Made by a program: the position numbers and the translations under genes. Positions 14,389-46,498 of a DNA stretch of 46,498 bases are shown here, piece after piece; the first letter of the stretch is position 1; each line of letters begins with the position of its first letter. The DNA lies in assembly GCA_029066805.1 (NCBI GenBank), contig JAIEFT010000019.1, forward strand, positions 1 to 46,498. The letters are read 5' to 3'. This DNA comes from Clostridiales bacterium (GTDB taxonomy: Bacteria; Bacillota; Clostridia; Christensenellales; Pumilibacteraceae). The notes under the pieces are model-generated. The model was not told the origin of the DNA. It made no database searches and was given only the letters and a program-made list of their open reading frames with translations.

Positions 14389-14550
14389 AAATACCTTTTA
14401 ACAGCCAAATTTTCGCACTAAATTTACAACTTGTTCGTCCTTATGCGTAAATAATAACATAATATGCACAATTTGTGTAAACAAACCGCCGATATTAAAC
14501 ACTATATATAGTATACGCAAAAATGCAAGCAATCACCATTCGCCATGCTT

Positions 14551-25903: not shown

Positions 25904-26461
25904 CTATATATCGAAATCCACTACTCCGCTTTCGGTGTGGTATAGTGCGCCGACAACAGCTACGTCCGAATCGCTTAAAATTCCTTTGATTTTGGAAACG
26001 CTATGCTTTATGTTGAGAACGCTTGCCTTGACCGCGTCCGCCTCATCGCCGATCGCACGCTTTATTTCGTCAGTCAAAAATTTTACATATCCGCTGTTTT
26101 GTTGTGTAGCGGCACATATAGCGCCGCAACCGGTATGCCCGAGCACGACTACAAGCTTACAGCCCAAATGCTCGACTGCGTATTCTATACTGCCCAACTG
26201 GCTGTTATCTATCACGTTGCCTGCAACGCGTATAACAAACAAATAGCCTATTCCCGCAGAAAAAATGCTTTCCGGAATTACTCTCGAATCAGAACAGCTT
26301 ATGATTACGGCATACGGTTTTTGTCCGTGCTTGCTTGTGTACAATCGTCTTTCGGGAGAAATATCCCCTTCGCCTTTAACTGAATTTATGTAAACTTTAT
26401 TACCTTTTTTCAGCCGCTCCAAGGCATCAACAGCGGTCATACTTTTATCTTGTACACACAT
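25904..26461 (-). CDS. Beta-class carbonic anhydrase
   Basis: Zinc enzyme interconverting CO2 and bicarbonate, likely cytoplasmic (no signal peptide). At 185 residues it is typical of small beta-class enzymes. The zinc ligands and active-site pair are visible: Cys56 and Asp58-Arg60 in SCSDSRV, then His109 and Cys112 in LGHTGCGAI. The family segment FVIRVAGNVID and the helix SIEYAVEHLG are also present. The ATG at 26461 has GGAG about 14 bases upstream, which is long; an in-frame ATG at 26440 is an alternative start. Immediately upstream is a 3' remnant of a ppdK gene in the same orientation, so it may once have been transcribed together with a pyruvate phosphate dikinase gene. No own promoter is clear. 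Confidence 0.95.
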   Translation of the reverse strand: MCVQDKSMTAVDALERLKKGNKVYINSVKGEGDISPERRLYTSKHGQKPYAVIISCSDSRVIPESIFSAGIGYLFVIRVAGNVIDNSQLGSIEYAVEHLGCKLVVVLGHTGCGAICAATQQNSGYVKFLTDEIKRAIGDEADAVKASVLNIKHSVSKIKGILSDSDVAVVGALYHTESGVVDFDI

Positions 26462-26486: not shown

Positions 26487-26519
26487 TTATTTGCGGGGAT
26501 TTTTGATATTAGCCTGTGC
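26487..26519 (-). repeat. Direct repeat copy 1 (ppdK 3' end), candidate attachment site
   Basis: A 33-base stretch matching 45888-45920 at 30 positions in the same orientation. The three differences fall at third codon positions (GCT/GCA, AAT/AAC, CCC/CCT). Homology stops at both ends. Together with copy 2 it brackets the 19.4-kb region holding the giant surface operon. From 26559 to 26688 I see no gene. Confidence 0.7.
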
Positions 26520-26558
26520 GACTGTGTTACAAAACAAGGCTATAACTTCCCATAACAT
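26487..26558 (-). pseudogene. 3' remnant of a pyruvate phosphate dikinase gene
   Basis: The minus strand reads AQANIKNPRK-stop, the same ten C-terminal residues and stop as the ppdK gene at 45888. Nucleotide differences are few and all silent. Upstream of these ten codons the similarity ends abruptly. The remaining reading frame back to ATG at 26558 (23 codons in all) bears no likeness to PPDK and is not expected to be a real protein. It lies 25 bases before the carbonic anhydrase start. Confidence 0.7.
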
Positions 26559-26688
26559 TGGGTTTTTACCGCTCAATTAGGTGGTATATATTTTCACACC
26601 GAATATCTTTCTATACACAGCAAAAGCAAGCGCTATGTCCGATAGATATAGGCTTGTCTTTTGTTATCGAATTTCGGTAAAGACGGAA

Positions 26689-26916
26689 TTACAGCAATTT
26701 TTCGAGCTGCTTGGTCAACTTTTGAAGCTGCTCGCGCTTTATTTCAATTTCGGCGTTAAACGCTCTGAAGAACTGTACATCGGTATCGTCGGGAACATTG
26801 CGGCTTAACATAGCTTCCATTATTACCGCCATGGACCTTATGCGTTTGGCCTCGAGTGCTTTGATTTCTTCCTCGAGAGCGTTAAGCTCTTTTGCTAATT
26901 TACTTTTTTGCGACAT
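26689..26916 (-). CDS. Small coiled-coil protein
   Basis: A 75-residue, highly charged helical protein with two heptad-rich halves (about 5-30 and 52-75) separated by a short loop with NVPDDTD. It has no signal peptide, membrane segment or known domain, so it is expected in the cytoplasm, perhaps as a helical hairpin or dimer. The start at 26916 is chosen for AAGGAG at good spacing; it overlaps the end of the upstream membrane protein gene by 17 bp, indicating translational coupling. A longer in-frame start exists but lacks support. The overlap suggests it binds the cytoplasmic part of that membrane protein, which is inference. Confidence 0.7.
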   Translation of the reverse strand: MSQKSKLAKELNALEEEIKALEAKRIRSMAVIMEAMLSRNVPDDTDVQFFRAFNAEIEIKREQLQKLTKQLEKLL

Positions 26917-29900
26917 GTTGTTTGCTCCTTGTTGTTTTTTTATTTTTTTGAGTCCCGGCTTCGGAATCGGCATTGCTCTGTTCCTCATGCTGTTTATCTT
27001 CCGCCGCCGCGGCTTCTTGCTCGGGAGCGGCAGCGGTTTCAGTCGGCTCTACCGCATTTTCCACACTTTCCTTTTCGTCGGTTTCGTTGGGTTCGACCTC
27101 TTTTTGCGCAAGCTTAGATTCGTCTTCCGTTTTTGTCTCTGCGCCTACGCCTTGATTGTCCTTGATAACATTATTTATTTTTCTCTTATAAGTTACCTTT
27201 TTGATCAAGCCTTTTTCCAAAAGCGCCTCGGTGCTCTCATACGGAGGACGGTAATCCTCATTCTTGTTTTCACCCTGCACAATAACCAATTTTTCGCACA
27301 GCTGAGCAATAAGCTCTTCTGCATATCCGAGTCTGCGCTGACTCTTGATACGGAACAAGCACGGTGTTTCGGCAAACTTTTTGCTTTGCGAACGTTCAAC
27401 CCTATATTTAGTATCCTCGTAATCGTCGGGATCAAGCGCGAGATAGAGGCAAAGCGTCTTCCCACGAATTACGAGTTTAGCTAACTGGTTCCTGCCACAA
27501 CTAAATGCGTCGTAGCCCTTGGAAACTTTGCTCTTAACCTTTTTATAGCTTAACAAAATATTTTTCAAATATGAATATCTTTCTTTTGCTTCGTCAGTGG
27601 CTTGAATGAGTTTGACCGAGAAAGGTCTTTGATAGCTCACGAACGTAGCAAATCCGCTTTCTTCATCGCTTTCGATAAGGATAGCCTCTTCCTCTTCATC
27701 CGAATCGTCCTCCTCCGTCTCTGCCTTTTCCGCTTCGATCCGCTCAAGTTCTTCGGCAAGCCTTACGCTTTCCCTTGCCTCCTCGGCTATCTTGTTGGCC
27801 CTGACCGATGCGATCGTTGCGTCCATTGTAGCCTTTGTGCGCATAGCGACAATTGCTTTGCTTGTGAGCATTTGCAATACGCCTTTGTCATGCAACAGCC
27901 AGAATATAAACACGAGCACGCCAAGCGAACATATAACTATAATCAGTACAAGCCACCACGCCATACCTATAGTGTCGGTTTCCGGGACAAATATGTGGAA
28001 AATAGTATCGAATGTCAGTTCGCTATAATTGGCTGTACCGGCAACTGTCGCCGTAAGAAGATATGCGCCGACCTTCGCTTCCGACAGCTTGTTGATATTA
28101 TTGGCGGAATCGTAAATCACGTTCTCCTCGTCATCAACGTCGACGATTACAATCCTTGCAATGCCGTGGTGCGAGGCGGCGACAGGTATATTATCCTCGT
28201 TGGAGTATTTTCCCTCCGCCCAAGTCGTAATCGCAGGTGCGGTGCTCCAATAATTTTCGGCTTTGATTACTTCGAACGAAGGCAATTCGGAAAAGTCCGC
28301 AACGGTTTCCAAAAGTCCGGTGTAGTTCTTGGTCGCGGCAATCTCGGCGCGCAAGTAGTATTTGCCGACTTCCAGCAACTTGAGCCCTTCAGACACTGAC
28401 GTAGGGACAGAGCCCTCGGCATTGACGGTAAACGACGTGGTTCCGTTAAAGTTGAGCAATCCGAATCCTTCACCCGATTGCTTATATACTCTGTACTTGA
28501 TACCGGAAGAACCGTGTGCGGCGGTAGCCGATATAACGTTGACTTCTGGATTGTATTCGCCGTAAGCCCAGTTGGAGAGCTTAGGGATTTGCGTCCAATA
28601 GTTTCTCGCCTGCGTCACTCTGAACTGAACGAGCGCGTCCGCGCTGAAATTCTCGTTTATCGATGTGTAATTTTCGGTATCCGAAATCAAGCTTGCGAAC
28701 AGATAATAAGTACCGGCATCGAGATTGGCGAGAATTTTCGAGACTTTAGCGGGGGCTTTGCCCTCTTCCAGCTCGAAGCAGTCTTTGCCGTCGAACTTAA
28801 TCGCGGTATACTCGTCGCCGTCCTTTGTATAGACAGAGAACTTAACGCCGTCTCCGAATGCGGGAACAGCATTAATGACGTTAATGTTTTCGTCAAAGCC
28901 GTGCCATTCCCAGCTTACAATGTTGGGAGTAGTCGTCCAGGTATTGGTAACTTCAACAACCTCGAACTGTGTATAGTCATGCGCATTGTAATAGTTATTG
29001 CAGCCCTGCACCGTTGCATAGAGGTAGTAAGTCTTTTTGGCGTCGAGCTTGTTCAAAAGCTGTTCGACGTCCTGCGAAACTACGCCATTCTCAAGACGGA
29101 TCTCTTCAAGCCCTTCTACAAGGTTTTCTCCCGCCGCGTCTGTAGCTATGGAGAAGTACAAATCCTCGACGCCCCACTTGACGTCAGCGGTAAAAAGATT
29201 TACGTTCCTGTCGTACTCGCCGTATTTCCAGCGCACAACATAAACACCGCTTACCGAGTTGTAGGCCTGAACGATTTTGTACGCATTTTGAATAGTAACT
29301 TCGCCGCTAAATCCGCCGATACCCGTAATAGTCAAATCGGCGTTTCCCACGTTCCCTTCGTTGTCCGAAGAAAGCGTATAATCCTCACCTTCTACGAGAA
29401 CACGACGGTCAAAGACAAGCTCTATTTGGGGCACGATATTAGCTTCGTCGGTATAAGGAAGTTCAGTATTTAACACTCTGTACTTTATGGTCACGTTCTC
29501 GTCGGTAGACGTGCTTTCACCCACGTTGCTTTTGGTAAGCTCGTACGCACTGACGGTAAGGTTAACGTCCAGCGTAACTTCCGAATAAGCAACACCGCAA
29601 GACACTTCACCGCTGTTATCGTTATCCCACCAATGCTCATGATTGTCGGGCGCAATGCCGCTCGGAACGTTGACATTGAGCAAATATTTGCCTGCTTTCA
29701 ACGTTTTGAGATATGCATTGAGCGAGTTTACTCTGAACAGTGTATCTAAAACAGTGCCATCTTTGACTTCGTAAAGCTCGGCGGTATTGCCGATATACTT
29801 GACAGCGAACGTTTCCTTTTCCTCGCCGACTATGGAGGAAACTGTGTAGTACACCGTGTCCCCATGTTGAGCTCGGAAGGTGTACGAAATTATATTGTCA

Positions 29901-30097
29901 TCACCGTAAGTCCAATTAAGGGCGAGACCATTGGGAACGGCGGCTCCGTCGTCCGAATTAAGTATGGCGTTGGCGCTCGGTTCATCCGCAAGCACTGCAA
30001 CATCCGCTTTGGCGTAAGAAACCATAGCGGGAACAAATAGCAGCGTTGCGAACATGCACAACATGCAAGCAGTTAATAACAGTCTTTTTTTAATCAT
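26900..30097 (-). CDS. Single-pass membrane protein with extracellular repeats and a cytoplasmic domain
   Basis: A 1,065-residue protein with an N-terminal signal peptide. The exported part (about 35-705) has roughly five repeats of 105-120 residues. Each opens with a W...G.Y...N motif (for example IPKLSNWAYGEYNPEVNVIS) and ends in a G.YYL.A...T.NY strand. A transmembrane helix follows at about 712-738. The cytoplasmic side has a helical Glu/Ala-rich segment, an acidic linker, and a compact domain (about 814-940) with LLSYKKVKSKVSKGYDAF and VIRGKTLCLYLALDPDDY. A low-complexity acidic tail then ends in a Lys-rich stretch. The start at 30097 follows GGAG by six bases and overlaps the giant gene's stop by 8 bp. 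I believe the cytoplasmic domain recurs in other Clostridia proteins, but I cannot name a family. It could link the surface to the cytoplasm. Confidence 0.85.
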   Translation of the reverse strand: MIKKRLLLTACMLCMFATLLFVPAMVSYAKADVAVLADEPSANAILNSDDGAAVPNGLALNWTYGDDNIISYTFRAQHGDTVYYTVSSIVGEEKETFAVKYIGNTAELYEVKDGTVLDTLFRVNSLNAYLKTLKAGKYLLNVNVPSGIAPDNHEHWWDNDNSGEVSCGVAYSEVTLDVNLTVSAYELTKSNVGESTSTDENVTIKYRVLNTELPYTDEANIVPQIELVFDRRVLVEGEDYTLSSDNEGNVGNADLTITGIGGFSGEVTIQNAYKIVQAYNSVSGVYVVRWKYGEYDRNVNLFTADVKWGVEDLYFSIATDAAGENLVEGLEEIRLENGVVSQDVEQLLNKLDAKKTYYLYATVQGCNNYYNAHDYTQFEVVEVTNTWTTTPNIVSWEWHGFDENINVINAVPAFGDGVKFSVYTKDGDEYTAIKFDGKDCFELEEGKAPAKVSKILANLDAGTYYLFASLISDTENYTSINENFSADALVQFRVTQARNYWTQIPKLSNWAYGEYNPEVNVISATAAHGSSGIKYRVYKQSGEGFGLLNFNGTTSFTVNAEGSVPTSVSEGLKLLEVGKYYLRAEIAATKNYTGLLETVADFSELPSFEVIKAENYWSTAPAITTWAEGKYSNEDNIPVAASHHGIARIVIVDVDDEENVIYDSANNINKLSEAKVGAYLLTATVAGTANYSELTFDTIFHIFVPETDTIGMAWWLVLIIVICSLGVLVFIFWLLHDKGVLQMLTSKAIVAMRTKATMDATIASVRANKIAEEARESVRLAEELERIEAEKAETEEDDSDEEEEAILIESDEESGFATFVSYQRPFSVKLIQATDEAKERYSYLKNILLSYKKVKSKVSKGYDAFSCGRNQLAKLVIRGKTLCLYLALDPDDYEDTKYRVERSQSKKFAETPCLFRIKSQRRLGYAEELIAQLCEKLVIVQGENKNEDYRPPYESTEALLEKGLIKKVTYKRKINNVIKDNQGVGAETKTEDESKLAQKEVEPNETDEKESVENAVEPTETAAAPEQEAAAAEDKQHEEQSNADSEAGTQKNKKTTRSKQHVAKK

Positions 30098-33000
30098 GAT
30101 TTTCTCCATTCTCGTCTTCGCGTTTTTTCTTTTTAGGCTTCCATAACAGGATATAAAAGCCGATTATGGTCATAGCTATAACTTCCACTCCGATAATGCA
30201 AACCGCAATAATCCAGTAAGGGAAATCCGTCCTTTGAACGATCTCGCCCATTACAGCGGGCACTTGCTTGTCGTAATCCGGGTTGACAATTACGGTAGTG
30301 TCGATTTCGTCAACGGACGGCTCGACAATGATCGGCGGTTTTACCGGCGTATCTGTTGCCAGTATGGTAAGCCTTGCCGCAAGCGGACGGATAGCCCTGT
30401 AGTTTTCGCTGTCGGGAAGAATGAACTTGGCTGTTATGTCGTAAGCCCCCGCGTCCATAGCGCCGTTGAACTCCAACTCTTTGCCGTCCACAGTTACGTA
30501 GTACTTGACTTCTATTCCGTTGGGAATTGTTCCGCTGACGGCAAGCATGTGCGTATTGCCGTCGTATGTAACGGTTTTACCCTCAAGCGATACGTCAGTT
30601 ATGCCGAGCGACGCAGGAACAACCTTAAGCGTTGCCGTCATCTCTTTAATCGGCTCATAATTCTTTGTATCTCCGTAGAACCTAACTGTTACCTTCTGAC
30701 TTCCAACCTCGGTGCGGGAGTTGTTTACATACTCGTAGGTAACGCCTGCGGGCAGTATACCTCTGATCGATAACGAGTGCGCGTTGCCTGTATATGCTAC
30801 CGTCGCGTCAGGGAACGTCACGTTAAGATCGTATTTTGCCTGAACTATATTAAGCTTTGCAGTCATTTGAGTAACGGATAAGCTGTAGTTCGGATTCTGT
30901 GAATAGAAATGAACAATAACCGTATACTCATCTACTTCCACGCAGCGGTTATTCTCGTAGTAATATGCGACGCCAGCAGGAAGCTTACCCGATATGAAAA
31001 GCGAATACGGATTGCCGGTATAAACTACCGTCTTGTCTTCAAACTTAACGCCGCTCAAATCAATCATATGTTCGGATGCCGTAATGGTGAGCTTAGCTTC
31101 ATACAAAGTTTTAGTTCCGGCGGCAAACTCGTAGTTATCCTTGTACGCGTCCTTAATCCAAATCGTAGCCGTTGCGTCGTACTCGCCGACACCGGTTTGA
31201 ACACTGTTGCTGTATGTTACGTCCACCTGCGCGGGCAGAGTCCCGATTAACTCGATACTGTGCGAATTGCCGTCGTAATGATAGCTCGCGTCATCAAAAG
31301 ACAAGCTCAAACTGATCTTAGCCTTATTGATGGTAAGAGTTGCCGTATATTCGGCTTTCGTATCGCTCTTAATGTGTTCGTCATTTGAAACTACAGAATT
31401 GATAAACTTGTAGTTGACAGTATCTTTAAGCGTAAGCGTAGCGGTAACTGTGCCACTTTCATTGACATTGATCTTGCCGTTGTTCGCGTATTCAACCATA
31501 ATAATATCAGCCGCGTCAGCAGGCAATCCGATTACTGCAAGCGACCTAGCTTCGCCTGGAGCATATACAAATGAATTACCCTCGAACCTAACGTCTTTCA
31601 GATCGAATGTCGCCCTTGAAATCTCCACATTGAACGAACCGCCTGTTACATCTACATAGTTGAGCGCCGAAACCTTGTACTGCGCGGTATAAGTACCCGC
31701 GTTGATGAACAGGGTGTTTTTCGTCATCGCCGCGATTTGCGCTTTGGCATAATATGTACCGCTCCAGTTTGCGTGGCTGTACGTTATTGCCGCGCTGCTG
31801 TACAAATCGGGGTAATTCGCCCAAATGCCCTCGCCTGCCGTAATAATGTCCGACGTGGTAAATGTTTGATTGATATGTAAGCTACCGTTATAAGTGGCGG
31901 TAATATTATCTATACCGCTAACTGTGAACGACGCCGCGCTTACAGTGAACGCAAACGTATGAGTAAATTCCGCATACTCTACGTCGTCGACTGTAACTGC
32001 ACCCACGGTTGCCACAAGCGTGTAGCTGTCTGCGGGCATAGTGCTGTTTATATAATCCGAATATTCAGCTTTGGTGAACGGGTCGCCGATTTGCTCTGTA
32101 TCGCGCTTGAGAATGAGCGTGATCGTTGCGGGGCTTTCGGCGTTGTCCTTTTCCAAATTGGGAAGACTCGGCACAGTTGTTGATCCGAACGTCCAGCCCG
32201 CTATTCCGGAGACAAAACCGTTGCCGCAAATAGCCGCGTACCAAGTTTTCGTCACAGTAAGCGTGCCGTCATCTTCGAGCTTTGCTCCGCCTACAGCAAC
32301 AAATTCGTAGTTATCCGAGTCGTTGAGCATAAGCGTCGCCGTTGCGACTTTCATGCCGGAAACGGTAGCCTTGTTACTATTATTAGTATACTTTATTGTA
32401 TACAACGTCCCGTCAGGGTATTTGACTGTTACCCCGCCGTCTACATAACGCACTACCGCGTTGGTAACTTCGATTGCACCGTCGGTCACGCCGGCGATTG
32501 CAGCGGGATAATATTTATACCCATCCACATCGCTCTTGACGTAGCCGCTCATGAGCTCCGAGCCATCGTCGCTTAACCATTTCGCGTCGCCGACTGTAAC
32601 TTGCTTTTTAGCAACCTCTACCGGAATAGTATATGTGTAGGTCTTGCTCTCGCCATCCACGGTGAATTCTACGTCTACCGAAGTATCTACAGCATGCAGG
32701 CAATTGTCGTTTGCATATATTACTGTCGCCGTATCTTTGGCTGCGTCATACGTATGCGTGTGTTGTCCGTTCCGACTGCATACTAACACTAGCCCGCTGA
32801 CATTGAACTTGTCGAACACTGTGTAACCTGCTTTTTTTACACCGTCGGTGTTGACAGTGCTCCAGTCATGTCCCAGCGCCGCTATCTGTGAATACGTAGT
32901 ATAATCACACCCTTCGCGCTTGCATGTGTCGTATTCGTCCCAACCTATACCCTCGCACGTCGCCGCTTGCGCATCGTGATGCTCAATGTCATGCGCATTG

Positions 33001-39000: not shown

Positions 39001-42000
39001 GTGATCGTAGCTTGTTTCTCCTCTGTAGTATCGAGCTTGTTTGCCGCCTTGAACGCGGTTTCTACGTCGGCGTAAACCTTAGTATCGCCGTCGAATGTGA
39101 CAGTAACACGCTCGTTGCCGACAAATGCTTCGTCATTTTCGTCTACGATTATGTCGTAGCCTTTAGTCGCATGTTCGTCCGCAACAAAGATTTTATCGGG
39201 CGTAGTCGAAGGATTGGTGGTTGCATAGCTCGTCGTGAACGTACCCCTGCCGTTTTGCATACGCACACCGATCTTTGGCGAAGCAGTCGCAGTGAGTGAG
39301 TTCCCGATCACTACCTTTTTGCCGCTAAGCACGTAAAGATTGCTTGCGGAAAGCTCGTCGTGCGCCCCCTGCTTATTGCCTAAAATTGTGGGATAAGCGT
39401 CCTCGCTGTCCGAAATCGTGAGCTGACTGTTAATGCCTATATAAACGCCGCCACCGGCGGTTGCCGCGATATTGGCGTCCGTGTCGTCTTCTCCGCCTAT
39501 AACAACGGCTCCGGAAATCGTTAAGCCTACAAAATAGTTGATTCCGCAGTCGTAATAAATGCCGCCGCCATAGCCTTCCGTAGCCGTATTTCCGGTTATA
39601 ACTACATTTCCGCTTATGACGCTTGAACCAATACTATGGCTTCCCGGCAAGTTAGGACTGCGGAAAATACCGCCGCCATTCTTTGCCGTATTATTGCGTA
39701 TCTTGACATTACCGCTTATCACCGCGGAAGACGTATGCAATGCAATGCCGCCGCCGTTGCCGTTTTCCGCCTTGTTCCCTATGATTTCAATGTCACCGCC
39801 GAGAGCCAAGTGCGAGTCGATCAATCGGATGCCTCCGCCCAAAGAATCATCTTCGCTATCCAGCCCTTTCGCGACGCCCGTAGCGGTATTATTATTAATC
39901 GAACCGCCGGTAAGCGTGTTGACATTCCACGTATTTGAGTATATGCCGCCGCCTTGCAATGCGGTATTTTCGCTTACCGTACCACTCAACATTGTTACCG
40001 TCGCCGTATAGTAGGCATGAATGCCGCCGCCTGCGCCACCGCTTGTGTTATGACTTATTTCACCGCCGTCGAGCGTGAAAGCGCCCGAAGTGTACACACC
40101 ACCGCCATGAACTGACGAGGTATTATGGCTGATATTTCCGCCCATCATACTGAACGTGCTTCCGGAGAAGTACACACCGCCGCCGTTGCCTGTGCAATCG
40201 TTGTTTCTTATCTCGCCGCCCGTAATAGTGAGCGTGCCGCTGAATAAGGAGACGCCACGACCGATATTGTCAAATATCTCGGCATTATCTTGTAAATTAA
40301 GCGTACCCGAACTGAAATATACGCCGCCGGTTTTGTTCTTAGGAGCATTGTTTGAATATATCTTTGCATTTCCGCCTATAGTCAAACCGCTGGAGAATGC
40401 CGAAGTAGTGCCAAAACACAATCCGCCGCCTTCTTCCGATGAATTATTCTCATATATCTCGACGTTGCCGTCTATACTGCTCCCGGCTCTGCAAAAACTA
40501 TATATTCCGCCGCCGAACGTACCTGCTGTATTGTGATGAATTTTCGTCGTTCCGCCTATATGAACATTTGCGGTAACCATCAAGCCGCCGCCGGTTTTAC
40601 CCGACTTGTTATTTTTGATTTCACCGCCCGTAATTTCAAATGTGTGTTCGCAATCGAAGCGCAAACCGCCGCCGTCTTTGTTACTATAATTGCCCTCTAT
40701 TGAGCCACCCGTCATCACAAACGCAGAATTTACGCTACCCGACGACACGCCGCCGCCTGCTTCGTTCGCCCTGTTTCCGGCTATTGTGCCGCCTTGGAGC
40801 TTGACTGCTGCCGGGCTCGAAGACTCCGAATCCTGATTGCCAATCAATATCGCGCCGCCGTATGCAACGCCATTGCCGCCCGTAATTACTCCGCCGTAAA
40901 TAGCGTTAACGCCGCTATCACCATCGGTAAGCGTATCGTTTATTATGTACATTCCCGTAGAGCCATCTACGGTATATAAATGCTTAACCGTCTGATCGGT
41001 ATCGATAATAGTAAGCGTGCCGTTTACGGATATTACCGAAATATTAACGTCGGACGCGGCGCGCAATACTTGACCGTTAAGGTTGAGCGTAATGTAGCTG
41101 CCTGCGTTTACCGTAAGCGTAGTTTCGGTTATTTCATCGCCCAAACCTTCCCTATAACCGAGCTTAACTACCGCCTGATTTTCCTCTGTGGTCGCGCAAT
41201 TGTTTGCCGCTTTGAATGCAGTTTCTACGTCATTGTATACCTTAGTCACACCGTCGAATATGACAGACACGCGCTCTCGACCGACATATCCCTCACCGTT
41301 CTCGTCGGAAACAATTGCGTAATTGTCATTATCAGACACGAAATATTCGGACGGCGCAGCAGAGTTATTTTGCGCATAGCCGCTCGTGAAAGTGCCTTTG
41401 ACTGATTCGAGCGTAACGCCTATTTTTGTTGTATTGGAAAGTTCGCCGCACGTAATTACTGCTTGTATCGGAGTAGTGCCGACAGACTTTGCCAAATATA
41501 TGTTGCTTTGCACACCGTTTTCGGCGGCTGTTTTGTTATCTTTAATATACGGATTGCCGCTTAATGTATAGATGTTTCCGTAAGTGTTTACATGAATAAC
41601 ATAAACACCGCCGCCCGTCGGAGCGATATTATTTGTTATACTTCCGCCGGCATGAATGATTGCGGCTCTGCCGTCGCTGAAAATACCACCGCCGCTAGTT
41701 GTCGCGGTATTGCTATTGATATTCGCAGAATCTTCGATTGTCAATATTCCGACGCTAGCGTATACGCCGCCGCCGCTTCTTGCGGTGTTACTGTAAATCT
41801 CACCACCGTTTATTGTTAGCGTAGCGTTGTTAACGGAAATACCGCCGCCGTCACAGGTTGCGATATTATTGTAAGTTTTAGCGTCGCCGCTTAAAGTAAC
41901 TCTGCCGCTTGAAATGTACACACCTGCGCCGTTCTGGCTTGAGGTATTACCGTAGATTTCACCACCGCTGATGACAGTGTCTTGGGGGTTGATTAGAATA

Positions 42001-45000
42001 ACGCCACCGCCGTTTCCGGTTGTATTATGACCGTAAATTTTGCCCCCGCTCATTATAAGCGTACCGTTTACGTAAAGTCCGGCTTCTGTATTATTGTGTA
42101 TCTCAACGTCACCCTGTAAGTTAAGCGTACCTGAGATATACACTCCGTTTCCTGCGTTATCGTGAATATCTACGTTACCCTGCAAATTAAACGCAGGCGA
42201 CGAATTACCGGAGACATGAACTCCGCATCCCGTATTATCGTGAATATTGACGTTATCATCTATTGTAAGCGTAGCCGCAGTGATACCGACGCCGTGCCCT
42301 TTATTACCATAAATCTCAACGTCGTCTTGTATGACAAGATCGTTCGTCATTGCATAAATGCCGCCGTAATTGCTATTGGCGTTAGATATGTTGGAATAAA
42401 TTTTTACATTTCCGCCTACAGTCAACGTTGTATGAGAGCCCGAGAACATGCACAATCCTGCACTTTGAGCCGCCTTATTCCCATAGAACTCGGCGTTTCC
42501 GTCTATGATCACGTCTTTACCGCAACCGAAATATAATCCGCCGCCGCTAGCGCCCGCGGTATTGTCATGGATTTTTGCTGTTCCGCCGATGTAAAATTCA
42601 TTAAGACCGGCCCCGGCACGCATACCGCCGCCGTCGCCTCCGGCTTTGTTATTATTAATTTCGCCGGCGATCATACTGAATTCGGAGTAACCGTTAATAA
42701 AGACTCCCCCGCCGGCGTATCGCGCATAATTGCCCGCTATCGATCCGCCCGTCATTTCAAACTTAGACCTGAGACCTAGAGCTATGCCACCGCCGCTACC
42801 GCCATTATTTCCGGCTATTGTGCCGCTCTGAAGCTTGACTATAGCACCACCCACATCCCCGGTGTGTTCGCCGGCTGAAATCGCGCCGCCGTAACTACCG
42901 CTTCCTTTACCGCCGGTAATGACGCCGCCGCTAATCGTTCCTACGCCCTCCACGCCCTCGATAAGGCTGTCATCAAACATATACACACCGTTTGCGCCTA
43001 CGGTATAACGGTGCTTTACGTTGTTCGGATTGCTGTCTTTTATAGTAAGCGAGGTATATATGGGTTTAGAAGCAGTCTCGGGATTTTTAGTATAATTGCT
43101 AAGAGCCGTATTGAAATTATAATTAGAATTTATAACTTCTATGACGCTACCCGATTCCGCTACGTAGTTAACGAGCCTGCCGTTGAGGTCGAAAACCACG
43201 TACTTGCCAAGATGGACCTCCATAGTTTCGCCCACGTGCTCCACACCGTCGGTATCCGTAGCCGCAAGCAGAGTGATTGTTGCCGGGTTTTCTTCGGTCA
43301 AATCGTCGTAGTCGTCCACATGGAAGAATGCTCCCTCCGCGTCCGCGTGATATGTAGTTTCGTCACCGCACTCGAGCTTGACGCGCCCCGGAATAACCGT
43401 AACCTCGCGCTTTGTCGGGTCCGGTTCCGAAGTCAATCCAAGTCCGATTGCATTAAGACCGAGGCTTTCCTCGCAAGTAAAATACTTGCTGGGCGACGCA
43501 GTGTTTTGTACGCCGTAGCCTGAAGTGAATACCCTGCCTAATTCAGTGGAAAACGCACTGCCGTACTGATACTTGGAAAAACGAATATCACATCCATTTG
43601 TGATTTTGCCGTTTACTTCGATTTTCGCACTGCCGTTGAGCAATACGTTATTTTTTCCGTTTGCGCCGTTGCCCTTTATTACCGGATTGCCGCTTATAGC
43701 CAGAACACGTCCATCGCCTACCCAGCTAATACCAAAGCTACCGTTACCTATAATTTTTCCGCCGGTCATGCTTACCGAACCGTATCCGGGAATATTTATT
43801 CCGCCGCTTGTATTGTTCTTTATTTCGCCGCCGTTTATGAAAGCGCTCGGAACGCCGTTGCCTGTTCCGTAAACTGCAATCGCGCTTCCTGCGGTATGTC
43901 CGTATATTTCGCCGCCGTTCATCGTGAACTTGGCGCTGTCAGCCGCATAAACGCCGCCGCCCATGCCGCCGTATCCGGCTACGTTGTCGTATATTTTTCC
44001 GTCTTTCTCAAGCGTAAATTCGCTGCCTTCGCCGACGATCGCCACGCCGCCGCCACTGCCTTGGCGAATAACATTGCCATCTGGATCGTCGCAATGGTTT
44101 CCGTATATAAGATAAGAGCCTTTTGTCTTGACCTTAGCGCCGCCGCTTATCAAAATGCCACCGCCGCCCTCGCCGCCGATTGTGGTCACGGAATTGTTAT
44201 AGCTCGCGCCGGCGTACAGTTCAATAACGTCATCTACCGAGCGAGAGCCGTTAATATATATGCCGCCGCCACGATAAGCGGTGTTGTAATTGCAATTAAC
44301 TTGAGTTAAGGAGGCAGTGCAATGTTCAAGCGCAATGCCGCCGCCGTTACCCGTCGCAGTGTTATAACTGCATTGCACCATGCTCATTTCTATGGTCATA
44401 TCGGTTGCGTAAATTGCCCCGCCGCTACCCGACGCGGTGTTACGCATAAGCTCGTTGGCGATTCCTTTAAATTTAGCGCTGCTACCTTGAGCAAAGTACA
44501 ACGCTCCGCCGCTACCGTTTGTCGCGTGGTTGCTTTCCGCCGTAAAATCATTAGACGTAAACTCGCCGGACATCGCGAACAGCGCTCCGCCACTCTTTGC
44601 TGTGTTATTGTTTAATTGAAATCTGTTGTTAATAGCGAGCTTTGCTGTCGTAGAGTCGTTATTGAGCCAAATTCCGCCGCCGCGCTCGTCTGCGGTATTA
44701 TTGGATATACGCGCCCTGTTATACGCATCCCCTGTACCGTCGAGCGTAAGAGTGCCACCGTAATTGAATATTCCGCCGCCGTTGTTTGTTGCCTTATTGC
44801 CTAATATGTAGACGTTGGGACGCAATGTGCTTTCGCGCTTGATATTGACTGTAGAGCCGTTTGCCATATACAGTCCGCCGCCGTTATCTGCGGTATTGCC
44901 CAAGATATTACCGGAAACGAAATCAAGCGTTCCGTTGCTCGCAACGTACACACCGCCTCCGCCGGTTCCGCTAATGCCGAGATCTTCGCCCGTACCGCCG

Positions 45001-45551
45001 GTTATTATTCCTCCCGTAATCCTATTGTCCGAAGTGGCGTCAAGCGCCGCCAACCCATTTTCATTAACAGAGTAGCCACGTCCTGTACCATGAGTATCGC
45101 TGCTTATCGTAAGATGTGCGTCAGACGCGACCTTTATTACCGATCCCTGTGCGCCATCGGCGAGCTTAAGAATGTTGTTTTTCAGTTCGAGCTTTATGTT
45201 CGCGCCCGTGACCACAAGCGTGCTGTCGATTTCCGCATCCTTCGTTAGGGTGACGGTAGCGGGATAATCTTGGGAAGTTTCTTGCGCATTAGCAAGCGCC
45301 ATTGCCGCGCTCAATGTGAGTTTCGTTTCGGTTATTTCGCCGTTTTCGTCTATTACATATTCGTATGTAACACCGTTGTATGTAACAGTCGCTTCGGAGA
45401 TTTCGTCTGCATATGCTGTTACGTCCACAAAGCGGAATATATGAAGAGCGTCATCACTAACGCTTCCGCCATAAAAAAGCGACCAAAAAATAACCGCGGC
45501 CAAAACGATCATCAGTGATAAAACGAGCGAATACCTACGTTTGCTTATCAT
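30090..45551 (-). CDS. Giant beta-helix surface protein (adhesin-like), 5,153 residues
   Basis: Predicted exported and membrane-anchored surface protein. An N-terminal signal/anchor helix (about 8-30) is followed by about 3,780 residues of right-handed beta-helix repeats of the GGGVYV...GTFTMSGGTI.GNTA kind, related in pattern to Pmp/adhesin repeats. They are organised in seven modules, each closed by a (F/I)TSGY...P..(Y/F)F..D element. Residues about 3810-4220 hold Cys-pair motifs of the form ATC.E.G...C..C. Immunoglobulin-like MBG-type repeats (Y.G..H.L...G.LP..V.Y.YVN) extend to about 5070. A C-terminal helix (about 5110-5137) and a KPKKKKRED tail follow, with no LPXTG. The start at 45551 is chosen for GGGGAG at eight-base spacing; the longer frame begins at the transcription start. 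It is the first gene of a three-gene operon. Function in adhesion is inferred from architecture; no enzyme domain is seen. Confidence 0.9.
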   Translation of the reverse strand: MISKRRYSLVLSLMIVLAAVIFWSLFYGGSVSDDALHIFRFVDVTAYADEISEATVTYNGVTYEYVIDENGEITETKLTLSAAMALANAQETSQDYPATVTLTKDAEIDSTLVVTGANIKLELKNNILKLADGAQGSVIKVASDAHLTISSDTHGTGRGYSVNENGLAALDATSDNRITGGIITGGTGEDLGISGTGGGGVYVASNGTLDFVSGNILGNTADNGGGLYMANGSTVNIKRESTLRPNVYILGNKATNNGGGIFNYGGTLTLDGTGDAYNRARISNNTADERGGGIWLNNDSTTAKLAINNRFQLNNNTAKSGGALFAMSGEFTSNDFTAESNHATNGSGGALYFAQGSSAKFKGIANELMRNTASGSGGAIYATDMTIEMSMVQCSYNTATGNGGGIALEHCTASLTQVNCNYNTAYRGGGIYINGSRSVDDVIELYAGASYNNSVTTIGGEGGGGILISGGAKVKTKGSYLIYGNHCDDPDGNVIRQGSGGGVAIVGEGSEFTLEKDGKIYDNVAGYGGMGGGVYAADSAKFTMNGGEIYGHTAGSAIAVYGTGNGVPSAFINGGEIKNNTSGGINIPGYGSVSMTGGKIIGNGSFGISWVGDGRVLAISGNPVIKGNGANGKNNVLLNGSAKIEVNGKITNGCDIRFSKYQYGSAFSTELGRVFTSGYGVQNTASPSKYFTCEESLGLNAIGLGLTSEPDPTKREVTVIPGRVKLECGDETTYHADAEGAFFHVDDYDDLTEENPATITLLAATDTDGVEHVGETMEVHLGKYVVFDLNGRLVNYVAESGSVIEVINSNYNFNTALSNYTKNPETASKPIYTSLTIKDSNPNNVKHRYTVGANGVYMFDDSLIEGVEGVGTISGGVITGGKGSGSYGGAISAGEHTGDVGGAIVKLQSGTIAGNNGGSGGGIALGLRSKFEMTGGSIAGNYARYAGGGVFINGYSEFSMIAGEINNNKAGGDGGGMRAGAGLNEFYIGGTAKIHDNTAGASGGGLYFGCGKDVIIDGNAEFYGNKAAQSAGLCMFSGSHTTLTVGGNVKIYSNISNANSNYGGIYAMTNDLVIQDDVEIYGNKGHGVGITAATLTIDDNVNIHDNTGCGVHVSGNSSPAFNLQGNVDIHDNAGNGVYISGTLNLQGDVEIHNNTEAGLYVNGTLIMSGGKIYGHNTTGNGGGVILINPQDTVISGGEIYGNTSSQNGAGVYISSGRVTLSGDAKTYNNIATCDGGGISVNNATLTINGGEIYSNTARSGGGVYASVGILTIEDSANINSNTATTSGGGIFSDGRAAIIHAGGSITNNIAPTGGGVYVIHVNTYGNIYTLSGNPYIKDNKTAAENGVQSNIYLAKSVGTTPIQAVITCGELSNTTKIGVTLESVKGTFTSGYAQNNSAAPSEYFVSDNDNYAIVSDENGEGYVGRERVSVIFDGVTKVYNDVETAFKAANNCATTEENQAVVKLGYREGLGDEITETTLTVNAGSYITLNLNGQVLRAASDVNISVISVNGTLTIIDTDQTVKHLYTVDGSTGMYIINDTLTDGDSGVNAIYGGVITGGNGVAYGGAILIGNQDSESSSPAAVKLQGGTIAGNRANEAGGGVSSGSVNSAFVMTGGSIEGNYSNKDGGGLRFDCEHTFEITGGEIKNNKSGKTGGGLMVTANVHIGGTTKIHHNTAGTFGGGIYSFCRAGSSIDGNVEIYENNSSEEGGGLCFGTTSAFSSGLTIGGNAKIYSNNAPKNKTGGVYFSSGTLNLQDNAEIFDNIGRGVSLFSGTLTITGGEIRNNDCTGNGGGVYFSGSTFSMMGGNISHNTSSVHGGGVYTSGAFTLDGGEISHNTSGGAGGGIHAYYTATVTMLSGTVSENTALQGGGIYSNTWNVNTLTGGSINNNTATGVAKGLDSEDDSLGGGIRLIDSHLALGGDIEIIGNKAENGNGGGIALHTSSAVISGNVKIRNNTAKNGGGIFRSPNLPGSHSIGSSVISGNVVITGNTATEGYGGGIYYDCGINYFVGLTISGAVVIGGEDDTDANIAATAGGGVYIGINSQLTISDSEDAYPTILGNKQGAHDELSASNLYVLSGKKVVIGNSLTATASPKIGVRMQNGRGTFTTSYATTNPSTTPDKIFVADEHATKGYDIIVDENDEAFVGNERVTVTFDGDTKVYADVETAFKAANKLDTTEEKQATITLGYQDGLGDETAVATLNVNGGKYIILDLNGQILRHTGNSSVIQLNDGMLTVTDSKPEVVHKYTVNSNGLYVFDDTLDESADGVKKLTGGVITGGKKCGIYVPSAVSSNIEPYVLNLEKGTIAGNSNNGGYGGGVNVYVFNMSGGAICGNTAEYGGGVVVFYSSFIKGQDAFATITGGVIKNNTAQFGGAVYVRSDNSNDQILFKMNGDDAEIYGNTARNSGGGMYLNSNSNVVLQRGKIHGNTASGNGGGVYIHYSATLSMNGGNIYANTATISGGGIAVGEDTSVFTMTEGNIYANTAAYNGGGVYVGKGKFTMTGGEITDNQVTSKNGIGGGVYAKGNETVKLSGDITILNNTYAGNGSENSSGVLPPSNLYVDANSKVNIAGELTASDSPKIGVTVYSTPQTFTTGYNDFHSGTVPTTFFVSDRAECEVLLDGDGEVAIGVVEASVTFNGNTSKFMTVKDAFSYANTLATTAESFAVVTLLKDAEIDITATKIYAIEIESGKFIRFDLDGHVLTAVHADQQEVYDIFYVSGTFELIDGAKTKSNALTLSTGNKTIEGGVIRHAIGNANTPVGRAIYVNSGSFTMSGGTITDCIIADKGGAVYVNGGYFTMSGGTITGNRVTSSSGDGGGVYATGAEVTLNEGCVISDNKGYFGGGIFVTSHSTLIMNGGEIKDHKNGIANGGGVYVGSMSSFTMNDGSIKNNEVSAYGGGVYVISDVTLFSMIGGTISDNKGGNGGGIATYAEITIGKDAQLDNNEASNGGGIYATNETSTLFDVVVNGTLSNNTAGNGGGLYIIGKIAVKVGGTFAGNHSTSYSGGGAIRIAGSVKGEPSLTLQSGSSLTGNTAVYGGGVYVAGGTFTMSGGIIGGTDEADKNSATSYGGGVYFSGSTFVMSSGTITGNSATSYGGGIYCTQYGGTFKISGNPEIYGNTNGGNVYLESGKVINVTGALTNTQKIGITLQNGTGIFTSGYGNRNYSAPSTYFESDDDAKDVLYGYSNYNIEAAIGSAVASVDYGGFDAYNFATIKEAWDYALYIGSAKVTLLVDEVVVTRGTHLAEITGNITLELNGKTLNLNGGFDQYHYNFYQSNIKIIGGSLTIQDTSSENTGKITGGYAENGGAVYVDGGSLTLASGTISGNNAAVRDDVYNGGGVYVTNNGTFTMNDGTIGGTDDADKNTAQNGGGVYIDHGTFNMNGGTISGNTATENGGGVYANGGTFISGTIFGNTAKNGGGVYVGGMLYLGDNTNSNSKLTISGNTATEGKGGGLYFAGGPTPSIKGLVLINENTGGNLYAINNKIFNVADINNDSHIGVTLGTSSPDPYDKETGVFTSGYNKSVAPSTIFFSDNAAYTVGWNKADGQAIIGDFVANVEFGSAEGRLYSYESINTAWTDAIADANGATITLIKNVTASAALSAMTSGKVTLDLNDKTLDLNKKGHIEVNGSSAYLTIDDSGTNGTIKNGLAVNGGALYILYGTVEMKKGTITECEATSSGANYGGGGAVIVCDYATFIMNGGTITGNITATGDGRFGGGGVYVDWRATLFAVSGNAVISGNTLADKITPSNVWLYSKVITVSEALTEGAEIGVTLESGKGVITSGYGENNKDSDGKVIAPSSYFFADNGSCVWLSESNEAYLGHDIADGYHARVEKCLEEGNIEYWHCSICGKNFSDEACTTVVDSVVLEAQGHDMELTSKAATCTEDGEIEHNHCLRCDKHFSKAKDPISGEYKELSGAYVEDTENGYKSKALGHDLTTEKKESTCEEAGYIKKACARCDYSENTNLAILKHSGEIVSAKAATCKEKGNYEYFECMNGCNQYYYDQDGDHVCETSTSNKSDVEIPKLSHTEPEKPDWEWVGYTSATAKFVCPVCGETIRTETATVTSLEQAPSCTEKGKITYTATVGSYEDIKVVTTDDALGHDWDAHWKTWDNTSGEWKIEVEILCIRGLCGEVGMAKTWVTGVVTSTTEATCIATGKKVYTASVEYEDEVFTCLTTKELELAIDPNAHDIEHHDAQAATCEGIGWDEYDTCKREGCDYTTYSQIAALGHDWSTVNTDGVKKAGYTVFDKFNVSGLVLVCSRNGQHTHTYDAAKDTATVIYANDNCLHAVDTSVDVEFTVDGESKTYTYTIPVEVAKKQVTVGDAKWLSDDGSELMSGYVKSDVDGYKYYPAAIAGVTDGAIEVTNAVVRYVDGGVTVKYPDGTLYTIKYTNNSNKATVSGMKVATATLMLNDSDNYEFVAVGGAKLEDDGTLTVTKTWYAAICGNGFVSGIAGWTFGSTTVPSLPNLEKDNAESPATITLILKRDTEQIGDPFTKAEYSDYINSTMPADSYTLVATVGAVTVDDVEYAEFTHTFAFTVSAASFTVSGIDNITATYNGSLHINQTFTTSDIITAGEGIWANYPDLYSSAAITYSHANWSGTYYAKAQIAAMTKNTLFINAGTYTAQYKVSALNYVDVTGGSFNVEISRATFDLKDVRFEGNSFVYAPGEARSLAVIGLPADAADIIMVEYANNGKINVNESGTVTATLTLKDTVNYKFINSVVSNDEHIKSDTKAEYTATLTINKAKISLSLSFDDASYHYDGNSHSIELIGTLPAQVDVTYSNSVQTGVGEYDATATIWIKDAYKDNYEFAAGTKTLYEAKLTITASEHMIDLSGVKFEDKTVVYTGNPYSLFISGKLPAGVAYYYENNRCVEVDEYTVIVHFYSQNPNYSLSVTQMTAKLNIVQAKYDLNVTFPDATVAYTGNAHSLSIRGILPAGVTYEYVNNSRTEVGSQKVTVRFYGDTKNYEPIKEMTATLKVVPASLGITDVSLEGKTVTYDGNTHMLAVSGTIPNGIEVKYYVTVDGKELEFNGAMDAGAYDITAKFILPDSENYRAIRPLAARLTILATDTPVKPPIIVEPSVDEIDTTVIVNPDYDKQVPAVMGEIVQRTDFPYWIIAVCIIGVEVIAMTIIGFYILLWKPKKKKREDENGENHD
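34200..45420 (-). repeat. Seven tandem beta-helix modules inside the giant surface gene
   Basis: Module ends are marked by the TSGY-type element at about residues 675, 1388, 2107, 2594, 3156, 3514 and 3782. This gives lengths near 675, 713, 719, 487, 562, 358 and 268 residues. After each of the first five or six ends, a new module opens with a V.FDG.TKVY.DVETAFKAAN-like strand set and a L.LNG..L cap before the GGG repeats. Modules 2 and 3 share the closest opening segments, also at DNA level. Confidence 0.75.
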
Positions 45552-45672
45552 TTTCCATTCTCCCCAATATTCCGCACTTATTATATTTTCCGCGAAAAAG
45601 CAACAAGTGTTTGCGACTATTATAACGCTAAGCAAAACAATAAAGTTTGCAGCATACAATACGGTTCATTAA

Positions 45673-45701
45673 ATTATATTATACATTGCGAATTTTGTCA
45701 A
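45673..45701 (-). promoter_or_regulatory. Promoter of the giant surface operon
   Basis: Minus strand: TTGACA (45696-45701), 17-base spacer, TATAAT (45673-45678), a perfect consensus. Transcription would start near 45666, giving a leader of about 115 bases before the ATG at 45551. The leader holds a second TATAAT (near 45616) without a good -35. I see no riboswitch-like structure. Confidence 0.85.
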
Positions 45702-45808
45702 TATGATTTCTAAAATATTTCATTTGATTTTCCATATAGATTAACAGATAAATCCAATGAAAGCCATTAAAGAAAATATTACTTTAGTTTATACCTTATT
45801 TTTGAGCA

Positions 45809-45845
45809 TAAAAAAAGGACTTACTTCCCGAAGAAGCAAGTCCCG
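45809..45845 (-). terminator. Rho-independent terminator of ppdK
   Basis: Minus strand: GGACTTGCTTC, a TTCG-type loop, then GAAGTAAGTCC and a run of seven T (45810-45816). The stem has about 11 bp with one G-T pair. It lies 43 bases past the ppdK stop and separates it from the surface operon promoter. Confidence 0.9.
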
Positions 45846-45887
45846 AAAACAACAAATGTGTTTATGCTTATTTTACACAATTATTAC

Positions 45888-45920
45888 TTATTTGCGAGGA
45901 TTTTTGATGTTTGCCTGTGC
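45888..45920 (-). repeat. Direct repeat copy 2 (intact ppdK 3' end), candidate attachment site
   Basis: The last ten codons and stop of the intact ppdK gene, matched at 30 of 33 bases by 26487-26519 in the same orientation. See copy 1. Confidence 0.7.
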
Positions 45921-46498
45921 CGCAGCGAGGCGCGCGATGGGCACGCGGTACGGCGAGCAAGACACGTAGTCCAAGCCGATGTTGTGGCAGAACTCGATGG
46001 ACGAAGGATCGCCGCCGTGTTCGCCGCAGATGCCGCAGTGAAGCGTTTTGCGCTCGCCTTTGCCGAGCTTGACGGCGGTTTCCATAAGCTTACCTACGCC
46101 GACCGTATCAAGCTTTGCAAACGGATCGAACTCGTAAATCTTGTTGCCATAGTAGCTGGGAAGGAACTTACCTGCGTCGTCGCGGCTGAAGCCAAACGTC
46201 ATCTGCGTAAGGTCGTTTGTGCCGAAGCAGAAGAATTCAGCCTCTTTTGCGATATCGTCGGCAGTGAGCGCCGCTCTCGGAATTTCGATCATTGTGCCGA
46301 CTTCGTACTTGAGGTTGACGCCCGAAGCCTTGATGACCTCGTCCGCGGTCTTGACAACAGTCTTTTTAACGAATGCCAATTCCTTAACTTCGCCGACAAG
46401 CGGGATCATAATTTCGGGAACGACCTTCCAGTCCTTGTGCCGCTTTTGCACCGCGATAGCCGCTTTGATGACCGCTTTGGTCTGCATAACGGCGATTT
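45888..46498 (-). CDS. ppdK: Pyruvate phosphate dikinase, C-terminal part (5' end outside window)
   Basis: Enzyme interconverting pyruvate and phosphoenolpyruvate with ATP/AMP and phosphate, central to PPi-linked glycolysis in many anaerobes. About 202 C-terminal residues are visible, covering the end of the PEP/pyruvate-binding TIM barrel. Signatures include VPEIMIPLVGEVKEL, VGTMIEIPRAAL, AEFFCFGTNDLTQMTFGFSR and the active-site loop LHCGICGEHGGDPSSIEF with the catalytic Cys. The C-terminus is SPYRVPIARLAAAQANIKNP. The frame is open to the window edge, so the first visible ATG (46487) is internal. The gene ends at a clear terminator. Its last ten codons are repeated at 26487, next to the carbonic anhydrase gene. 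Confidence 0.96.
   Translation of the reverse strand, partial: IAVMQTKAVIKAAIAVQKRHKDWKVVPEIMIPLVGEVKELAFVKKTVVKTADEVIKASGVNLKYEVGTMIEIPRAALTADDIAKEAEFFCFGTNDLTQMTFGFSRDDAGKFLPSYYGNKIYEFDPFAKLDTVGVGKLMETAVKLGKGERKTLHCGICGEHGGDPSSIEFCHNIGLDYVSCSPYRVPIARLAAAQANIKNPRK

What the first reader, a model, noticed from the sequence alone, without database searches (positions are those of the whole stretch)
26487..45920. Giant surface operon bracketed by a 33-bp direct repeat of the ppdK 3' end: possible integrated island
The last ten codons plus stop of ppdK (45888-45920) recur in the same orientation at 26487-26519, just upstream of the carbonic anhydrase gene. Between them lies only the three-gene surface operon. 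The match is 30/33 and all three differences are silent, so both copies probably came from functional ppdK genes. Integration into a gene's 3' end with the element restoring the end is a known habit of tyrosine-recombinase islands. No recombinase gene is present in the interval, so this may be a remnant, a mobilised passenger region, or instead the trace of a second, lost ppdK copy.
Basis: partly seen in the sequence, partly recalled or inferred. Interest (0 to 1): 0.75.

Follow-up and report, generated by a model that had tools for sequence, protein, structure and literature searches.

The report
Recombinase-less surface-protein island at ppdK end
A block of giant surface-protein genes in an uncultured gut bacterium sits in a docking site at the tail of the metabolic gene ppdK, where related bacteria carry mobile DNA islands probably inserted by a serine recombinase.

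Summary
In detail: the last 33 bases of ppdK recur beside the carbonic anhydrase gene (30/33, all silent, nowhere else in the genome). The island reading is well supported; the likely agent is a large serine recombinase (LSR), not a tyrosine recombinase. Solitary ppdK tails occur in at least 9 of 20 genomes of the genus. In G008, G041 and G217 an LSR gene directly follows ppdK; in G009 it follows a tail copy. Such insertions replace the last codons of PpdK (KNPRK becomes RQPRNK, RSPRNK or RNPRSK) and leave the original tail at the far end. The window island has no recombinase: a cargo-only island resembling pseudo-SCC, carrying a three-gene surface operon that G013 keeps at another locus. Its far-end arm matches G005 and G008 (19/27) but the contiguous LSR islands of G009, G041 and G217 only at chance level, so the LSR as agent of this copy, and the operon as its cargo, remain inferences.

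The parts
45888..46498 (-). 3' part of ppdK (pyruvate phosphate dikinase), cut by the contig end; target gene of the integration
   Evidence: PF02896 E 3e-45; rest of the gene on contig C59
45888..45920 (-). attL: core plus the (inferred) replacement ppdK tail, AQANIKNPRK-stop
   Evidence: direct repeat with 26487-26519; read as attL by comparison with G008, G009, G041 and G217
45803..45887 (-). putative left end of the element: terminator-like hairpin (about 45817-45845) followed by TTTTATGCTCA, a motif also found after the ppdK end of G006, G008 and G009
   Evidence: 4 of 15 ppdK ends printed have TTTTATGCYCA (G018 there is cut by its contig end); suggestive only
30090..45659 (-). 5189-aa repeat-rich surface protein with an apparent C-terminal membrane anchor (by inspection); cargo
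   Evidence: ORF, sequence; C-terminal part 44% identical to a protein of G013
26900..30109 (-). 1069-aa protein: extracellular part, one apparent membrane span, cytoplasmic domain (by inspection); cargo
   Evidence: 61-63% over nearly full length to G013:C45
26689..26988 (-). 99-aa reading frame (may start later, about 26916), third gene of the operon; cargo
   Evidence: 59% to G013
26520..26546 (-). left arm of attR, i.e. right end of the element (...TTTTGTAACACAGTC)
   Evidence: 19/27 identical to the arms of G005 and of G008, random pairs mean 6.8 sd 2.3; 8/27 to the window's own ppdK; 8-11/27 to the contiguous LSR islands
26487..26519 (-). attR: core plus the (inferred) displaced original ppdK tail
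26487..26558 (-). small frame MLWEVIALFCNTVAQANIKNPRK ending in the tail; similar frames in G008 and G005 (MSSLKIIDQFCNTFAQANIKNPRK, MISMRIVDPICNTFAQANIKNPRK)
   Evidence: sequence, relatives; may simply reflect conserved att DNA
25904..26461 (-). carbonic anhydrase gene: chromosomal flank beyond attR
   Evidence: PF00484 E 1e-30; ppdK-carbonic anhydrase adjacency in G038
24769..25770 (-). HD-domain phosphohydrolase gene, followed by dnaG: core flank, directly next to ppdK in G016 and G007

Best explanation
The interval 26520-45887 is an integrated genomic island in a recurrent docking site, the 3' end of ppdK. Mechanism, inferred from relatives: a circular element carrying an LSR and an attP recombines with attB in the last codons of ppdK. 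The exchange lies within the shared stretch GCNCARGCNAAYAT. The element supplies a new ppdK tail, stop codon and terminator, so PpdK stays whole; the original tail is carried to the far end. In this copy both tails encode KNPRK, so the swap is silent. The window copy holds no recombinase. It is a cargo-only, pseudo-SCC-like island whose cargo is a three-gene surface-protein operon, inserted with a recombinase acting in trans or left after its gene was lost (G217 shows an LSR gene decaying in place). Shown by comparison: the repeats, unoccupied sites, LSR islands at the same site in relatives, tail replacement there, and the likeness of this end to other solitary tails. Inferred: that an LSR of this clade moved this copy, and that the operon came as its cargo.
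For: Repeat unique in the genome, silent differences. Unoccupied sites: ppdK to the HD gene about 66 bp in G016 and 85 bp in G007, ppdK to carbonic anhydrase about 112 bp in G038. Solitary tails in 9 of 20 genus genomes, 11 copies, in the stretches read, plus G041 and G217. In the 9 attL/attR pairs the likeness stops at the 5' side of the core (5-10 of 27, chance 6.8) while 18-32 of 33 match from the core on; eight pairs lie on one contig each, the G008 pair on two. LSR directly after ppdK in G008, G041 and G217, and after a tail copy in G009. The LSRs of G008, G009 and G041 form one clade, support 100/100, among 23 rows. Tail replacement: QANIRQPRNK (G008, G217), QANIRSPRNK (G041), QANIRNPRSK (G009) after ppdK against QANIKNPRK at the far end. 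G008 and G217, of different families, are 257/301 identical after the core, against 232/300 in the ppdK DNA before it. G038 (unoccupied) and G217 (occupied) bear the same genus label. Window arm 19/27 to G005 and G008; G005, G008, G002, G009 (both) and G041 share GACC at exactly -21. Operon orthologue in G013 at another locus.
Against: No recombinase in the window interval; the best own-genome match to the G009 LSR is 29% over part of the protein. The window arm matches the islands whose LSR and tail lie on one contig only at chance level (G009 10-11, G041 8, G217 11 of 27) and lacks their GACC at -21. G008, which it does match, has its LSR and its solitary tail on different contigs, and that tail's arm is only 11/27 like the arm of G217, whose left end is nearly that of G008; so the GTAACAC-type tails (G000, G005, G006, G008, G014, G015, G019, G005b) have no recombinase shown on the same contig and may belong to another recombinase. 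With G164 counted, the ppdK-linked LSRs are not one clade (2 changes). Base composition is not foreign. The window's two tails encode the same peptide, so the telling replacement is not visible here. TTTTATGCYCA is in only 4 of 15 ppdK ends. The G013 operon has no ppdK tail beside it.
Confidence: 0.68

Rival explanations
1. Two steps: the tail at 26487 is the scar of an older island that has since been lost, and the surface operon entered or grew between the two att sites later by another route (homologous recombination between surface genes, or another element).
For: The operon exists in G013 between argG/argH-like genes and pnp-like genes with no ppdK tail seen there. Homology between the two operons ends about 80 bp before the window's tail copy. 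Related surface genes occur at many loci in the genus. In G006 and G014 the 0.76-0.85 kb between ppdK and the solitary tail looks eroded.
Against: The operon fills almost the whole space between the two att sites, leaving about 230 and 170 bp, and no further gene-sized frame outside the three.
Confidence: 0.19
2. The same docking site, but this GTAACAC-type island was moved by a recombinase of another, still unseen kind.
For: The GTAACAC-type tails have GCACARGC cores and no recombinase shown on the same contig; the contiguous LSR islands have GTACARGC at the tail and other arms. A second att type with tails like QANILHPRSK exists.
Against: G005 and G008 share with G002, G009 and G041 the GACC at -21, and G002 is 17/27 like both and 15/27 like G041, a chain between the two types. 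G008 has an LSR of the clade at its ppdK.
Confidence: 0.18
3. The repeat is the trace of a second ppdK gene, deleted except for its end.
For: Silent differences fit two once-functional ppdK tails.
Against: One ppdK in the genome. In all 9 pairs the likeness stops at the same 5' boundary, and the sequence left of it is shared between solitary tails of different genomes, not with ppdK.
Confidence: 0.03
4. A tyrosine-recombinase island as the reader first suggested.
For: Direct repeats at a gene 3' end are common for such islands (recalled). G009 has a tyrosine integrase inside the 95-kb interval after ppdK.
Against: That integrase lies about 26 kb from the ppdK end. None of the PF00589 matches in the 20 genus genomes lies next to a ppdK tail. 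The recombinase genes beside tails are LSRs.
Confidence: 0.05

Closest known systems
SCC/SCCmec of staphylococci and ECC of enterococci (Ccr large serine recombinases, rlmH 3' end)
   Same: Large serine recombinase; insertion in the 3' end of a conserved gene; flanking direct repeats; variable cargo; remnants and composites (PMC6222049, passages; PMC7029136, passages).
   Different: Target is ppdK, not rlmH; one LSR gene per element where seen, not a ccrAB pair; Clostridia; different att core. The relation of the LSR to Ccr was not tested.
Pseudo-SCC elements
   Same: Flanked by the integration-site repeats but without a recombinase gene, thought to rely on one in trans (PMC2900268, passages).
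   Different: Different site and host; no helper LSR of the clade found in this genome.
SCC/ACME islands carrying the surface adhesin gene sesJ
   Same: Surface-protein gene carried in islands at a gene 3' end docking site (PMC7029136, passages).
   Different: The SCC element there named SCCsesJ has ccr genes; the surface proteins were not compared.
Site-specific LSR clusters (Durrant et al. 2022)
   Same: Related LSRs that share one conserved target gene (PMC10083194, passages).
   Different: The word dikinase does not occur in that paper's main text as held; its supplements were not read.

Membership tests
Site-specifically integrated genomic island | flanking att direct repeats | tested here: met
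Site-specifically integrated genomic island | unoccupied site in relatives | tested here: met
   G016, G007, G038; none in the same species
Site-specifically integrated genomic island | sporadic presence of the cargo | tested here: met
   nearly full-length 1069-aa homologue (63%) in 1 of 19 other genus genomes, at another locus; all other listed matches are partial
ppdK-site LSR island (family described here) | attR arm shared with LSR-bearing islands | tested here: inconclusive
   19/27 to G008, whose LSR is on another contig; 8-11/27 to the contiguous LSR islands of G009, G041, G217
ppdK-site LSR island (family described here) | LSR gene in the element | tested here: not met
   no such gene in the interval; best own-genome match 29%
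SCC elements | insertion in rlmH | tested here: not met
   insertion in ppdK
SCC elements | ccr genes | tested here: not met
   no recombinase frame in the interval
Integrative and mobilizable or conjugative element | relaxase or conjugation genes in the interval | tested here: not met
   only three non-overlapping gene-sized frames; Pfam finds nothing in the 1069-aa and 99-aa proteins or in the C-terminal 1499 of 5189 residues of the giant protein; the rest of it was not scanned
Active mobile element | excision to a circle | not testable with these tools
   needs reads or cells

The most novel reading that the evidence does not exclude
The ppdK 3' end is a docking site, shared by several families of one order of uncultured gut Clostridia, for SCC-like LSR islands carrying phage-defence, radical-SAM and surface cargo. 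Each insertion rewrites the last codons of a core metabolic enzyme and at the same time half of the attB site, so the PpdK C-terminus records the last element that entered and may decide which element can enter next. Recombinase-free islands such as this giant surface operon use the site as passengers.
Probability: 0.3. Interest if true: 0.68.

Novelty: new variant of a known kind. Interest (0 to 1): 0.52.

Why it matters
It links a 33-base curiosity to a family of mobile islands with a defined docking site, a candidate recombinase clade and an inferable attP/attB pair in uncultured gut Clostridia. It offers a route by which giant surface-protein operons can come and go at one chromosomal place, alongside anti-phage systems. 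It also shows mobile elements repeatedly replacing the end of a central metabolic enzyme without breaking its reading frame.

Tried and rejected
Second ppdK copy: rejected, one gene in two contig pieces. Real ppdK absence in G005, G010, G011, G015 and G019 (no match with the C-terminal query): rejected, all five have other ppdK pieces, so the assemblies break in the gene. Foreign composition: no clear signal (GC3 0.522 in the two large island genes, 0.578 in twelve other window genes, 0.555 in two other surface-type genes of the window; G+C table). Tyrosine integrase at the ends: none found. Phage, plasmid and viral collections: no DNA match for the attR region among phages; LSR relatives only under 60% identity in phages and plasmids; none in viral contigs (a pattern-based scan). 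LSR relatives at about 38-51% mostly showed no ppdK tail beside them, so specificity is claimed only for the clade of G008, G009 and G041 and for G217. G164 (tail overlapping the end of its LSR frame) and G381 (tail about 4.9 kb after its LSR, with a short ppdK-like stretch before it) were left as unclear. G306 (65% to the G041 LSR over its first half, the rest cut by the contig end) had no tail beside it. Direct repeats around the G013 operon: no shared 11-mer between the two flanks compared. Literature: no paper on ppdK as an integration site was apparent in the listings; these list only the top papers of an open-access library, the papers were not opened for this point except PMC10083194 (passages) and PMC6222049 (passages), and the one listed was not read.

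On checking, the confidence was lowered from 0.74 to 0.68 and a rival (another recombinase for this att type) was added, because G008's LSR and tail lie on different contigs and the window arm matches contiguous LSR islands only at chance.
Full report
Observation. The window is contig C11 of a 1.93-Mb assembly in 61 contigs. On the minus strand ppdK ends at 45888 with AQANIKNPRK-stop, and the same 33 bases recur at 26487-26519 with three silent differences. Shuffles give none, and the whole assembly holds only these two. It has a single ppdK, split over the ends of C59 and C11. Between the repeats lie the frames 30090-45659, 26900-30109 and 26689-26988.

Unoccupied sites. In the genus (20 genomes with the own one) the HD-phosphohydrolase, dnaG and rpoD genes form a recurrent row. 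In G016 and G007 ppdK ends about 66 and 85 bp before the HD gene. In G038, of the same order but another family, ppdK (95% over the C-terminal 202 residues) is followed after about 112 bp by a carbonic anhydrase gene 75% identical to the window's, with one tail. In G006, G013 and G017 1.3, 1.5 and 5.7 kb lie between ppdK and the HD gene. In the other genomes mapped, ppdK and the HD gene lie on different contigs, far apart (G009), or one of them was not found.

Solitary tails. Scans of fetched stretches and one whole-genome pattern search found ppdK tails without the rest of ppdK in G000, G002, G005 (two), G006, G008, G009 (two), G014, G015 and G019: 11 copies in 9 of 20 genomes. The pattern search alone found 7 of 20. 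The copy of G006 is degenerate. Because most genomes were read only in part, these are lower bounds. Outside the genus tails were found in G041 and G217, with unclear cases in G164 and G381.

Recombinase. In G009 the tail near C1:188213 is followed after about 260 bp by a large serine recombinase (PF00239 5.7e-33, PF07508 1.6e-20), then type I restriction genes and an ATPase-DUF234 gene, then the next tail near C1:201867, beside the HD gene. In G008 an LSR (67% to that of G009) starts about 290 bp after ppdK and the contig ends. Another G008 contig has an Avs4-like SMEK_N protein before a solitary tail and a carbonic anhydrase gene after it; that it is the other end of the same island is an assumption. 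In G041 the whole element is on one contig: ppdK, LSR 13538-15316, a 1106-aa helicase-like protein matching PADLOC PDC-S53, a protein matching Pfam Zeta_toxin, and the tail at 20794, about 7.5 kb in all. In G217, of another family, ppdK is followed by an LSR gene now broken into pieces, a 415-aa frame, three frames that look like radical-SAM proteins and one like an ABC or excinuclease ATPase (names from inspection, not from a family search), and the tail, about 10.2 kb. G217 bears the same genus label as the unoccupied G038. In G002 a 926-aa helicase-like protein lies between ppdK and a tail, without recombinase. The LSRs of G008, G009 and G041 form a clade with support 100/100 among 23 rows; G217 was left out because its gene is broken, and G164, if counted as ppdK-linked, falls outside the clade.

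How specific is it. Searching 396 genomes of the order, with at most three candidates scored per genome, gave 8 with an LSR at E at most 1e-80 to that of G041. Of these, G009 and G217 have the tail or ppdK beside the LSR, G164 and G381 are unclear, and G306, G394, G036 and G102 show none in the stretches seen. Of 16 loci in the GTDB collection I scanned the upstream side of 12 for a tail: L149 (the G009 record) and L150 (the G041 record) have the tail or ppdK there, ten do not, two of these (L151, L159) with little or no upstream sequence; in all 16 only L150 holds ppdK.

Where the exchange happens. Elements with a recombinase replace the ppdK end: QANIRQPRNK in G008 and G217, QANIRSPRNK in G041, QANIRNPRSK in G009 after ppdK, against QANIKNPRK at the far end. 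G012 has QANILHPRSK after ppdK, with its far end not seen. The exchange therefore lies in or before the ANI codons. Left of the core the two ends of an island do not match beyond chance (5-10 of 27; random mean 6.8, sd 2.3); from the core on they match at 18-32 of 33 (9 pairs, the G008 pair on two contigs). After the core G008 and G217 are identical at 257 of 301 columns, against 232 of 300 in the ppdK coding DNA before it, although they belong to different families. This fits transfer of one kind of element.

The window copy. The 27 bases before the tail at 26487 match the arms of G005 and G008 at 19/27 (P about 1.5e-5 each from 200,000 random pairs, 13 comparisons, not corrected) and of G006 at 17/27. 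They match G014, G015, G019 and G002 at 13-15, and G005b, G009 (both), G041, G217 and G381 at 7-11, at or near chance. The arms fall into a GTAACAC type with the core GCACARGC (window, G005, G006, G008, G014, G015, G019) and the arms of G002, G009, G041 and G217 with GTACARGC; G005b mixes both. GACC stands at exactly -21 in G005, G008, G002, both G009 tails and G041, not in the window (chance of GACC in an eight-base slot 0.010). G002 is 17/27 like G005 and G008 and 15/27 like G041. The two types are thus linked, but no GTAACAC-type tail was seen on one contig with a recombinase, and the G008 tail arm is only 11/27 like that of G217. The LSR as agent of the window copy is therefore likely but not shown. 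After the ppdK stop the window has a terminator-like hairpin followed by TTTTATGCTCA; the motif follows ppdK in G006, G008 and G009 but not in the 11 other ppdK ends printed, one of them (G018) cut short. No LSR of the clade is in the genome (best 29%). The interval is best described as a recombinase-free island, comparable to pseudo-SCC elements, which are flanked by integration-site repeats but lack ccr genes (PMC2900268, passages).

Cargo. The 1069-aa protein has one nearly full-length homologue in the genus (G013:C45, 63%, one TAG in the aligned stretch). There it stands with homologues of the other two genes between argininosuccinate-gene-like frames and pnp (names from inspection), with no ppdK tail noticed. 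DNA homology between the two operons runs to about 80 bp before the window's tail copy. The operon is therefore accessory and has occupied two loci. Whether it came in as cargo or was placed between two older att sites cannot be decided here. Surface-adhesin genes as cargo of islands at a gene 3' end have a precedent in sesJ on SCC and ACME elements (PMC7029136, passages).

Known kinds. SCC and ECC elements use Ccr large serine recombinases, the 3' end of rlmH, and flanking direct repeats (PMC6222049, passages). The ppdK islands work alike but differ in target, in having one LSR, and in host. I saw no report of ppdK as such a site in the listings of five searches, which cover open-access papers only.

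Confidence. Integration at the ppdK 3' end as the origin of the repeat: about 0.87. LSR of this clade or a near relative as the agent: about 0.66 (lowered from 0.78 on checking). Operon as cargo of the same event: about 0.6. The stated 0.68 refers to the account as worded, which marks the last two as inferred.

Noticed in passing
G009:C1:106428-188213 (L094-L098): About 82 kb between ppdK and the first tail holds a tyrosine integrase, AAA ATPases, a trypsin-like protease and a second LSR (47%) near its right end: probably several elements stacked at this site. Only part of it was annotated.
   Followed up: partly
G012 L083, G009 L094, G005 L101: A second att type: tails such as QANILHPRSK, QANIRNPRSK and QANIVHPRFK with related DNA (GGTCCAAG or GGTTCAAG), in G012 followed by LexA-like and UmuC-like genes. 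Its recombinase is unknown.
   Followed up: partly
window 26900-30109, residues about 720-974: The cytoplasmic part of the 1069-aa protein also matches frames of roughly 260-390 aa, several of them close to giant surface-protein genes, in many genus genomes; the protein has no Pfam match.
   Followed up: no
G000 C59/C11 and G005 C26: In both assemblies a contig ends inside ppdK at residue 710; the cause is unknown.
   Followed up: no
G004 L079 and G012 L084: The HD gene is missing beside dnaG and no match to it was found elsewhere in these two genomes.
   Followed up: no
G014 L075:5776-6760: The tail and a following terminator-like hairpin are both repeated (32/33 over the tail) around a 0.76-kb stretch that looks eroded: perhaps an island nearly emptied.
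   Followed up: partly
carbonic anhydrase loci of the genus (L005-L016): The carbonic anhydrase gene stands in several different neighbourhoods within the genus, so it may itself be mobile.
   Followed up: no
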